Positions 35,571 to 63,904 of a DNA stretch of 64,000 nt are shown one piece after another; within the stretch, counting starts at the first letter, position 1; each line of letters opens with the position of its first letter. The notes beneath the pieces are model-generated. The model did no database searches, was not told where the DNA came from, and saw nothing but the letters and a program-made list of their open reading frames with translations. This DNA comes from Closterium sp. NIES-65 (Eukaryota > Streptophyta > Zygnematophyceae > Desmidiales > Closteriaceae), in assembly GCA_948144175.1 (NCBI GenBank), contig CANXME010002009.1:1-64000 (forward strand). Direction: 5' to 3'. The translations under genes and the position numbers were made by a program.

Positions 35571-38500
35571 ATGGCGGACGAGCAAGCTCAACAAGGCATG
35601 TACCGCGCGCCTAACGGCGAGCATATGTTATTTCGCTTGAGCATTCCTTTGTCGTAGGCCTCAATCGTTTTCGGAACGGCTTCCGTCGAGCTCTGTCGTG
35701 TTTTTCTCGGATTTTGGTACACTAGTTCAATAGATTTCACGCTTTTTCCTTCGTTATCACCCGCAGGTGATGTGTCTAAGGACCCCTCTAACGGGTACAA
35801 CGATTGGGCTGCAGCTGCTATGCAGGTGAGCACGCTTAGCCACGAAGCTCAGCATCTGGCGACATCTGGAAGGAATAGGTTGCAGCTGTCATGCTGGGGA
35901 GCACGTTTCTGCTCAAACCTACGAACGGTGCAGCATACGCCGTCAGCAGCACACGATAGTTACGACAGCTTGAGCGAGTACTGTAACCCGAGCGATTATC
36001 GCAGAGTAACGCCCTCAAGGTAGTTCTCTATCGTTTCAGATTCACTCAAACGGGTCAGCGGACCTCAATACCGTCTTCAGATCACATCCCAGTCAGTAGA
36101 CCCCCACAGTCAGGAGACCAGCCGTGTCAGCAGTAAATCAGCAGATCTCGACCCAGCCAGCAGTACTTAACCCACTCGACAGATCTCAATTCAGACAGCA
36201 GACCTCAACTCAGTCAGCGGATCTCAAGCCAGAAAGCTCTGATCCCGACTGATGGCGACGCTCCCCGCTCTTTCGTCGGTCCTTGCAGTCGTCTAGCGCC
36301 CTGTGCGCTGGAAGCGGATCTTTCCTACCCAGTTCCTCACGACGCCAGTAGCCTTCTTTTCCCGCGCGTCCCGCTTTGCTCCTTAGGTCGACTTCCGAAT
36401 GAACTGGGTGCAGTCGGAACGGAAACTCTCAGTGCCCTAGTCCTTATCGTCCGCTAAACGGTCACTGAACCTTCGATTTTGTGGCGTGGAATGGTGGCCT
36501 GCAGGCGTATTACAAGTCCGGAGGGCAAGCGGCGCATGCAGGAGGTTACTACGGCGCACCAATGGGAGGGCATCCCCATCCGTACATGTGGGGACCACAG
36601 GTATGCGATTTGAGTATCATTTGATTCAAGCAGTTGTTAAGTAGTGGCGCCCTGTCGTCAATCGTCTCTCCGCTTCATGTTCCGCATTACTCTCACTCGT
36701 TTCTTTCCCCTCTGTTGTTCGATTTCCCCTTTGTCCTACTCCCCTTGCCTTCTCAGCCAATGATGGCAGCGCACTACGGTGGTGTACCACCAGGGCCCTA
36801 CGGCTATGCAGCTATGTATGCTGCACCTCACCCTGGCATGGCCCAAGGCGCTGCAGGGGCAGTGGCCCCATCCCCTTACGGTTACCCACCTCCTCAATCG
36901 GTACGCTCTTTTCAGATTTAGTGACGAACATGCCTGCCCCTCCTGCTGCTGCTGCTGCTGCTGCTGCTGCTGCTGCTGCTGCTGCTGCTGCTGCTGCTGC
37001 TGCTGCTGCTGCTGCTGCTGTTGCTATTACTGCTAACTACATCCAACTCATTGAGCCGTGTCTTCCTCCACTAATCCCCTTCTCTTCGCTAATCTCCCCA
37101 TCTCCAGGCGGACGGCTCTGAGGTGCCAGCAGCAGCAGCAGCGATGATGGGAATGACCCCGATGGGCCCCATGGCCATGCCAGCAGCACAGGGCTACCCC
37201 GGCATGCCCATGGACTACTCCCATGATGCCATGGCTGCTGCTGCCGCTGCCGCCGCCGCCGCCAGTGCTGCCGGCGGGGCTGCTGCTGCTGGGTCGGCCC
37301 CACCAGCAGCTGCCGCGGCGCCTGCTGCGCCTGCTGCCCAAGCTGCCCCTTCGAAGCGCAAAAGGTCGTCTCAGCAGTCACATGGTCAAGATGGCGCTCT
37401 TGCTACCACTGGAGGGACGAGCCTCGCCCATCCGCACACCCAGGCGGCACCAGGCTCGGGCCAAGCCTTGGCCCTGGCCTCAGGCTCGGCGGGAGAGTAC
37501 ACGTCCATGCCTTCAAGCCCATCCGAAGGCCCCTCTGCTTCGGCAGCAGCTGCGGCTGCTGCTGCTGCGGGTGCTGGTGGGGGCGGTCATGCTGCTGCTG
37601 GGGGAGCAAGAGGGGGCGTGGGTGGCGGAATGGCGTATAACCCCATGGGTGCGTCTGCTGCGGATATGTGGACTGGCGCTGCTGCTCCTGCTGCTGTGGT
37701 GCCGCCTCCCTCCCTGGGGCAGGGCGTTGGGGGGAAGCTGGGGGCACGAGCGGTAGGGGCGCGGGCAGGAGGGGATGGGGGCGACGTGGGAGGGAGTCTG
37801 ATGTACCAGGTGCCGTTTCGCGGGGTGAGAATACCCCGCTGTCCTTTCGTTTCCTCCTCCTTGTTTGTTCTCTTTGGCTCGTTGTGGTTCTTCCTGTCGT
37901 GCGCGCTCGAGTGATACGATGCTTTTGGGTGCCTCTCCATATGTGTTCCTGCTAATGTGTGCTTCTCTCCGTGATCGTTTGCAGGACGAGAGGGAGGTGA
38001 AGAGGCAGAGGCGGAAGCAGAGCAACAGGGAGAGCGCGAGGCGGTCGCGGCTGAGGAAGCAGGCAGAGTGTGACGAGCTCATAGCGCGGCAGACCGCCGT
38101 GCAGATGGAGAACATGGGGCTAGCCGCGGTATGTACCCCCTTTGCCTCTCTCCTCTTACCTCCTAGTCCCCTCTTCCTGCCATGCTGTGACGAGCTCATA
38201 GCGCGGCAGACCGCCGTGCAGATGGAAAGCATGGGGCTAGCCGCAGCATGTATGTACCCACTTCCCTCTCCCCTCTTCCCTCCTCCCTCTCCCCCCTCCC
38301 CTCTCCCTCATTGCTGCTCGCCACGCGAAGCAGAGAGACCATCTGAACGCCATGTTCTGTCTATCTTTCTTCTCCCTTTCAACTTTTTCTGTTTTCACGT
38401 TGCCGTTTCTCTGCGGACAGGAGCTAGCAAAGGTGCGGGAGCAGTACGCCTCCCTGTGTGCTCAGAACGCCCAGCTCCGAACCATGGTCAGTCAGCTGCA

Positions 38501-63904: not shown

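What the first reader, a model, noticed from the sequence alone, without database searches (positions are those of the whole stretch)
37985..63012. Echo exons: introns repeatedly contain partial copies of the neighbouring exon
In all four recognised spliced genes, and probably in the unrecognised gene at 1-3,735, one or more introns hold extra partial copies of the adjacent exon, often with the donor or acceptor kept. Copies range from nearly identical to badly decayed, so they arise repeatedly. Exon ends plus splice sites seem to be the favoured unit. I know of no standard feature type for this. It could feed exon duplication, alternative splicing or longer introns. It may reflect a repair process prone to short tandem duplication, or template switching.
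Basis: partly seen in the sequence, partly recalled or inferred. Interest (0 to 1): 0.85.

Follow-up and report, generated by a model that had tools for sequence, protein, structure and literature searches.

The report
Introns filled with partial exon copies
In this plant-like genome the introns of ordinary genes hold many partial copies of the neighbouring exon, left by frequent short local duplications, and some of those duplications are joined by a short palindrome that is repeated many thousands of times.

Summary
Observation confirmed. In four window genes (bZIP, RPS28, plastid-type peptide deformylase, RBBP4/MSI-like WD40), 7 of 20 modelled exons have a copy of at least 80% identity within 600 bp, covering 639 of 4070 exonic nt. 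It recurs elsewhere: 27 of 36 sampled chaperonin exon segments have one (sample partly chosen), and 21% of intronic nt in six loci is recognisable exon copy. Upstream copies carry the exon start, downstream copies the exon end. The copies stand in both haplotypes, so an assembly fault is unlikely. Non-exon DNA of the same genes is also full of local duplication, so an exon-seeking process is not required: short duplications spanning a splice junction are spliced out and survive.

A second, more novel layer appeared. A palindrome (core TTGAGTCGACTCAA, 18,867 sites against 3 for a reversed control) often lies between two copies of a 20-140 bp stretch; two such sites differ between haplotypes, one allele lacking the palindrome and the second copy. 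One of them carries an extra exon fragment. Most window echoes have no palindrome. Frameshift-free echoes differ from their exons by more silent changes than drift predicts; unexplained.

The parts
37985..38129 (+). bZIP exon (basic region and start of zipper)
   Evidence: PF00170 E 9e-17 on spliced piece; donor GTATGT
38186..38284 (+). echo of the bZIP exon end with its donor and about 34 nt of intron
   Evidence: 88% over 100 nt, offset 117; exon part 97%
41988..42115 (+). RPS28 exon; last exon at about 43041-43096
   Evidence: PF01200 E 1e-29 on the joined protein
42167..42265 (+). echo of the RPS28 exon end with donor
   Evidence: 89%, offset 126
46755..46835 (+). peptide deformylase exon, first copy
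   Evidence: acceptor CAG, donor GTCAGT
46886..46966 (+). second, whole copy of that exon (131-bp tandem unit)
   Evidence: 90%, tandem 46715-46979
47381..47574 (+). 24-bp tandem array of exon end plus donor (ATGTACAG|GTGAGC)
47678..47740 (+). decayed upstream echo of deformylase exon 47910-48102
   Evidence: 83%
47910..48102 (+). peptide deformylase exon holding the EGCLS motif
   Evidence: PF01327 E 3e-50; PDB 3cpm, chloroplast peptide deformylase, E 3e-76; motif name recalled
48149..48266 (+). downstream echo of that exon's end with donor GTGAGT; 6 of 6 substitutions in the exon part silent, plus one inserted codon
   Evidence: 92%
50543..50629 (+). upstream echo of WD40-gene exon 50723-50926 with acceptor
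   Evidence: 90%, offset 163
50950..51022 (+). downstream echo of the middle of exon 50723-50926, running into the 26-bp array
   Evidence: 85%, offset 164
59640..59827 (+). older likeness to exon 50723-50926 and its flank, beyond the 26-bp array and the LTR-like insert
   Evidence: 72-74%
59903..59951 (+). upstream echo of exon 60033-60164 with acceptor
   Evidence: 84%, offset 121
60403..60570 (+). duplication of an acceptor plus 12 exon nt (60403-60455 / 60518-60570) with the 28-bp palindrome AAGTGTTTTGAGACGTCTCAAAACACTT between the copies
   Evidence: 98%; near-palindrome 60484-60523
62647..62727 (+). upstream echo of exon 62802-62876 with acceptor
   Evidence: 94%, offset 136
62960..63016 (+). 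downstream echo of exon 62802-62876 with donor GTGAGT
   Evidence: 95%, offset 134
62546..62618 (+). 20-bp tandem array starting at a donor
44646..44842 (.). 89-bp duplication with TTGAGTTGACTCAA between the copies (not assigned to a gene here)
   Evidence: 90%, palindrome 44735-44748
50077..50220 (.). 63-bp intronic duplication (about 50077-50139 / 50158-50220) with TTGAGTCGACTCAA between the copies
   Evidence: palindrome 50140-50153

Best explanation
This genome makes short local duplications, in genes mostly with an offset of about 110-200 bp, at an unusually high rate. A duplication wholly inside an exon breaks the protein and is lost; one that spans an exon-intron junction leaves the coding exon intact and puts the extra exon end, with its splice site, inside the intron, where it is tolerated and decays. 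Repeated rounds fill introns with exon ends of many ages. The likely origin is end joining of breaks with long staggered ends: both overhangs are filled in, so the overhang sequence is doubled, and filler DNA may be caught at the joint. In a subset the filler is a palindrome of about 23-32 bp from one dispersed family. Shown: the copies, their polarity, their presence in both haplotypes, the palindrome between direct copies, and two sites where one allele has a single copy and no palindrome. Inferred: the staggered break and fill-in, the high rate compared with other genomes, and the role of selection.
For: Polarity: of 35 upstream echoes 28 touch the exon start and 0 the exon end; of 35 downstream echoes 26 touch the end and 0 the start; 0 of 70 is a whole exon (five of the upstream ones are units of one array). 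Offsets run from 112 to 620 bp; window exon pairs mostly 115-164. Non-exon DNA in the first four loci is also duplicated (57 of 82 150-mers), against 12, 45, 19, 14 and 35 of 120 in five stretches taken without regard to genes, two of them parts of the window. Plain tandem cases that include intron are seen (174-bp unit 96%, 124-bp array 99%); 24 of 56 echo pairs have alignable intron flanks. The window shows no indel of echo kind between haplotypes, and three chaperonin echoes are in both. Palindrome sites: 36 of 40 have a direct repeat in the two flanks (score 30 or more), 25 of 40 next to the palindrome; random positions gave 111, 37, 37, 87 and 43, 20, 17, 41 of 400. A 53-bp haplotype difference at C1657:360012 is X(30 bp)-palindrome-X against a single X in C1133, and X lies in an echo of the chaperonin exon segment 359486-359698. 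Precedent: small tandem duplications by fill-in and end joining (PMC8355091, abstract and introduction read).
Against: In 32 of 56 echo pairs the intron flanks show no clear likeness (z 3 or less), 11 of them with exon parts 93% or more alike, which plain tandem duplication with even decay does not predict. Frameshift-free pairs have 240 silent to 117 amino-acid-changing differences where 166 silent were expected if the echo were free to drift. Why offsets start near 110 bp is not explained; the search threshold may contribute, and arrays of 20 and 24 bp at donors do exist. Among 8 palindromes met in chaperonin loci only 2 have the direct repeat right next to them, 7 of 8 anywhere, and some on C1672 have none. 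Whether the two palindrome differences are gains, or losses by deletion between the two X, is not proven.
Confidence: 0.6

Rival explanations
1. A process aimed at exon ends, for instance copying from spliced or partly spliced RNA or a break tied to splicing or transcription, writes exon ends plus splice signals into the adjacent intron.
For: Likeness stops at GTGAGT or at CAG in several young pairs; 32 of 56 pairs lack alignable intron flanks; exonic nt are more often duplicated than non-exon nt (66% against an inflated 43%).
Against: 24 of 56 pairs do include intron, young arrays include intron at 96-99%, and non-exon DNA is also duplicated. I noticed no echo joining two exons without the intron, but this was not searched for.
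Confidence: 0.13
2. Part of the echoes are, or long were, used as alternative exon ends and are kept by selection on the protein.
For: Codon positions of differences 113/95/378 in 74 pairs; 339 silent against 255 expected, z 7.2, and 9 of 50 pairs with at least 5 differences individually at p below 0.05. The deformylase copy 46886-46966 is a whole exon.
Against: 40 of 46 indels in the pairs shift the frame; frameshifted pairs fit drift (99 silent, 89 expected); the upstream fragments printed mostly end without a donor. The pairs are not independent (several echoes per exon), so z is too high.
Confidence: 0.14
3. All echoes are target duplications of the palindrome element, the palindrome being lost later in most.
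For: Palindrome at the joint at three window sites and at two haplotype differences.
Against: Chaperonin loci L074 and L076 have echoes of 94-100% identity and no palindrome; nine exon echo pairs of the window with a filler, 72-95% alike, have none of this family in it.
Confidence: 0.1
4. Assembly artefact: haplotypes or reads stitched into false tandem copies.
For: The genome holds near-identical allelic contigs.
Against: No echo-sized difference between C1711 and C170, 98.8-99.6% alike in pieces; three chaperonin echoes also in both allelic contigs; copies differ by 0-20% and many by frameshifts.
Confidence: 0.02

Closest known systems
Intronic or degenerate exon duplications / tandem exon duplications (PMC9013439, results section and passages read; PMC12343006, passages read)
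   Same: Exon-like sequence in an intron of the same gene, from duplication within the gene
   Different: There about 2% of human, 0.08% of fly and 0.06% of worm exonic nt have a copy of at least 80% identity; here 15.7% in the window genes and 52% in the chaperonin sample (other method, small and partly chosen sample); here nearly all copies are partial and of the junction side
Small tandem duplications by fill-in and end joining (PMC8355091, abstract and introduction read)
   Same: Local direct duplication of a short stretch
   Different: There described as short insertions under 100 bp; here mostly 110-200 bp offset in genes, very dense, sometimes with a recurrent palindromic filler
Intron gain by tandem duplication of coding sequence with a proto-splice site (PMC2891723, abstract read)
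   Same: Duplication of exonic sequence, one copy ending up intronic
   Different: In that model (recalled) the offset equals the new intron; here the one case checked has offset 136 and an intron of 255 nt
Short palindromic repeats of Volvox organelles (PMC2670323, passages read)
   Same: Short dispersed palindromes in intergenic and intronic DNA of a green alga
   Different: There in organelles and judged inert in the nucleus; here in contigs with spliced nuclear genes, often between direct copies, and different between haplotypes
MITEs and introners (general knowledge; PMC9860276 seen in a search listing only)
   Same: Short, non-coding, inverted-repeat, high copy
   Different: Those have short target duplications of fixed length (recalled); here 20-138 bp in 23 clean sites

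Membership tests
Intronic (degenerate) exon duplication | exon sequence aligns to an intron of the same gene beyond chance | tested here: met
   shuffled controls in 69 and 108
Tandem (mutually exclusive) exon duplication | whole exon copied with its own acceptor and donor | tested here: not met
   0 of 70 in chaperonin loci; one whole copy in the window, 46886-46966
Tandem (mutually exclusive) exon duplication | both copies appear in transcripts | not testable with these tools
   no RNA data
Small tandem duplication by fill-in and end joining | head-to-tail direct copies close together | tested here: met
   24 of 56 echo pairs also share the intron flank, 32 do not
Small tandem duplication by fill-in and end joining | dependence on staggered ends and on NHEJ, CST and Pol alpha | not testable with these tools
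   needs genetics
Intron gain by internal tandem duplication | offset between copies equals intron length | tested here: not met
   one case: offset 136, intron 62547-62801 is 255 nt; other introns not tested one by one
MITE / cut-and-paste transposon (palindrome) | target duplication of fixed short length | tested here: not met
   X 20-138 bp, median 60, in 23 clean sites
MITE / cut-and-paste transposon (palindrome) | terminal inverted repeats | tested here: met
   palindromic throughout; 73 of 78 in held loci have a self-complementary centre
Volvox-type organelle palindromes | spread in organelle DNA, hairpin loop of TTTA type | tested here: not met
   window and chaperonin contigs carry spliced genes; centres mostly TCGA, AATT, ACGT, GCGC
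Introner | the same sequence carries both splice sites in many genes | not tested
   a genome-wide search with echoes was not made

The most novel reading that the evidence does not exclude
A new kind of nuclear insertion: a family of palindromes of about 23-32 bp (core TTTTGAG-NNNN-CTCAAAA, 18,867 exact TTGAGTCGACTCAA cores) that enters by a staggered cut of variable width and doubles some 20-140 bp of the target. It sits between the copies, is still polymorphic, and by doubling exon ends it builds part of the introns. Centres and outer arms vary while staying palindromic, as if each copy were made by fold-back synthesis. I found no report of such an element in the listings.
Probability: 0.4. 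Interest if true: 0.92.

Novelty: new variant of a known kind. Interest (0 to 1): 0.8.

Why it matters
How introns grow, and why some genomes have introns full of near-miss splice sites, are open questions. Here one genome shows many stages, from a haplotype-specific 30-bp copy to decayed remnants, so rate, size and target of the process can be measured directly. The splicing machinery must pick the true exon end among several near-identical ones, which makes the species a natural test of splice-site choice. The palindrome layer offers a sequence handle on the break-and-fill event itself.

Tried and rejected
Palindrome as the general cause of echoes: rejected, since most echo joints in the window and those in loci L074 and L076 have none. 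Plain tandem duplication with even decay as the whole story: not enough. Intron creation by duplication of a proto-splice site: in the one case checked the offset does not equal the intron length. Transposon with fixed target duplication: rejected. Palindrome known from viruses or prokaryotes: the 22-mer has 0 hits in viral contigs; the 18-mer has 4 stretches in the prokaryote collection of 257 Gb, about what chance gives (my arithmetic, 3.7). Empty alleles at L032 and L064: the other copies found are filled too (two further contigs, one). Haplotype search with L018: swamped by a 290-bp dispersed repeat. Rfam on L064: only weak matches far below the gathering scores. Motif at the cut: G before and C after the duplicated target in about half of 23 sites, too few to claim. 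A 46-mer around the L064 palindrome recurs in whole or part at dozens of places, so some elements may carry a common tail; not followed up. A count of the whole family TTTTGAG-NNNN-CTCAAAA was asked for and not answered. Species not identified: no tool for it.

Full report
What was checked. Contig C170 is its allelic partner, colinear and 98.8-99.6% identical in the main pieces. Four genes of the finding were identified on spliced pieces: bZIP (PF00170), ribosomal S28e (PF01200), peptide deformylase (PF01327, nearest solved structure a chloroplast enzyme) and an RBBP4/MSI-like WD40 protein. That the organism is a streptophyte was not tested.

The echoes are real. Self-comparison shows pairs of direct copies at exon borders in 37-64 kb, with offsets of 115-164 bp and 85-98% identity in the clearest. 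Against modelled exons, 7 of 20 have an echo of at least 80% identity within 600 bp, 10 echoes in all, 639 of 4070 exonic nt; 200 shuffled-exon searches reached at most score 29 where 40 was required. In the pairs printed, the copy mostly takes the splice signal with it. The echoes are in both haplotypes in the sense that no echo-sized indel separates them: the listed length differences between C1711 and C170 are 1-3 bp steps, triplet runs, minisatellites and a few indels of 6-42 bp, most of them in repeat arrays.

They recur elsewhere. The chaperonin family PF00118 gave exon matches in about 11 genes, mostly as allelic pairs; three pairs (C43/C1794, C1626/C1647, C1052/C1420) show the same stretch of the family model twice within about 270 bp. 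At nucleotide level 19 of 22 exon segments in four loci and 8 of 14 in seven further stretches have an echo, 3980 of 7680 nt. The first four loci were picked after the table was seen, so this is an upper estimate; of the seven stretches, L078 had 0 of 2 and L077 1 of 4. In six loci 4959 of 23,356 intronic nt (21%, range 5-30%) are recognisable copy of the neighbouring exon (L078, without echo, was not put into that call, and single-segment stretches do not enter the fraction). On contig C1672 three open, exon-like stretches are present 3, 4 and 5 times; that they are exons is not proven. The chaperonin segments are bounds of family matches, not proven exon ends.

Pattern. Upstream echoes carry the exon start (28 of 35), downstream echoes the exon end (26 of 35), in no case the reverse, and none is whole. 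That is what a short duplication across a junction leaves after selection has removed those inside exons. Local duplication is not confined to exons: 57 of 82 non-exon 150-mers of the first four loci have a local copy with exons masked (43% of nt, against 66% of exonic nt). This control is inflated because echoes of one exon match each other. Five stretches taken without regard to genes give 12, 45, 19, 14 and 35 of 120. So the high rate is the main fact; some exon preference is possible but not required.

The palindrome. All three perfect TTGAG-N4-CTCAA palindromes of the window lie at the joint of a local duplication. In the genome TTGAGTCGACTCAA occurs 18,867 times, its reversed control 3 times; GACTTTTGAG-N4-CTCAAAAGTC 4307 times against 0; one outer arm 3411 + 3772 times against 4 + 1, so most cores have other arms. 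Of 40 sites taken from the first contigs listed (not a random draw), 36 have a direct repeat in the two flanks and 25 have it right next to the palindrome; random positions gave 111, 37, 37, 87 and 43, 20, 17, 41 of 400; swapped flanks of the first 20 gave a 95% score of 24 and a maximum of 40. In 23 clean sites the duplicated stretch is 20-138 bp, median 60. Palindromes met by chance fit less well: of 8 in the chaperonin loci 2 have the repeat right next to them and 7 anywhere in the flanks, and some on C1672 have none. Density varies: 0-0.3 per kb in five stretches, 8 in the 36 kb of seven chaperonin loci, all 8 in two of the seven.

Two alleles. In the chaperonin gene on C1657 a 53-bp insert relative to C1133 is one 30-bp target copy plus a 23-bp palindrome; C1133 has a single target copy. 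The target lies in an echo of exon segment 359486-359698, so this allele carries one exon fragment more. In a second gene C2261 has 44 bp more than C1757, again target copy plus palindrome. Loss by recombination between the two target copies is not excluded for either. A 96-bp difference further on in the first gene lies in tangled repeats and was not resolved; the third pair compared, C326/C1882, differs in length only in microsatellites. Two other sites were filled in the other copies found.

What does not fit. If an echo drifted freely from birth, differences to its exon should be partly silent only because the exon is constrained. Observed are 339 silent and 208 other; 255 silent were expected (z 7.2; 5.5-9.4 over the mutation biases tried; read-through segments and pairs over 20% different were dropped, and pairs are not independent, so z is too high). 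Frameshifted echoes fit drift (99 silent, 89 expected); frameshift-free ones do not (240 against 166). In 32 of 56 pairs the intron flank beyond the splice signal shows no clear likeness, 11 of them with exon parts at 93% or more (five of the 24 with likeness are units of one array). Some echoes may have been coding for long, some may be copied from a diverged coding sequence, or fillers may start right at the splice site. I cannot decide.

Mechanism. Small duplications formed by fill-in at staggered breaks and end joining are established in other species (PMC8355091, abstract and introduction read). The X-filler-X shape and the palindromic filler fit that, the palindrome being caught or made at the joint. 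This step is inference. Literature was searched; I saw no paper on such exon echoes at this density or on this palindrome in the listings, which show only the best hits and cover open-licence PMC only.

Verdict.

Noticed in passing
window 51023-52357 and 58508-59656: 26-bp minisatellite whose unit holds another, slightly imperfect palindrome (GGGACTGCAGCTCCAGTCCC), in the WD40 gene intron; it differs by hundreds of bp between haplotypes.
   Followed up: partly
window 52356-52691 and 58159-58494: 336-bp direct repeats, 99% identical, bounding a roughly 6.1-kb insert that splits the minisatellite: looks like an LTR retroelement.
   Followed up: no
window 13676-33250: Large direct and inverted repeats of 72-98% identity, probably nested retroelements.
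   Followed up: no
window 10867-11011: Telomere-like AAACCCTAA units within a 73-bp tandem repeat in the contig.
   Followed up: no
L018:4989-5280: A 290-bp dispersed repeat with at least 39 near-identical places in the genome.
   Followed up: no
C2050, C244, C821 and C6, C1658, C347: Some loci have three near-identical copies instead of two: possible extra haplotype or recent duplication.
   Followed up: no
C6:107992-108153, C16:109899-110168, C21:1653908-1655370: The palindrome or its arm also forms tandem arrays with units of about 37-77 bp.
   Followed up: no
L074 (C43:1715501-1722900), upstream of exon segment 1716749-1716919: A roughly 1.4-kb array of 124-bp units, 99% alike, carrying the first 57 nt of that exon segment.
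   Followed up: partly
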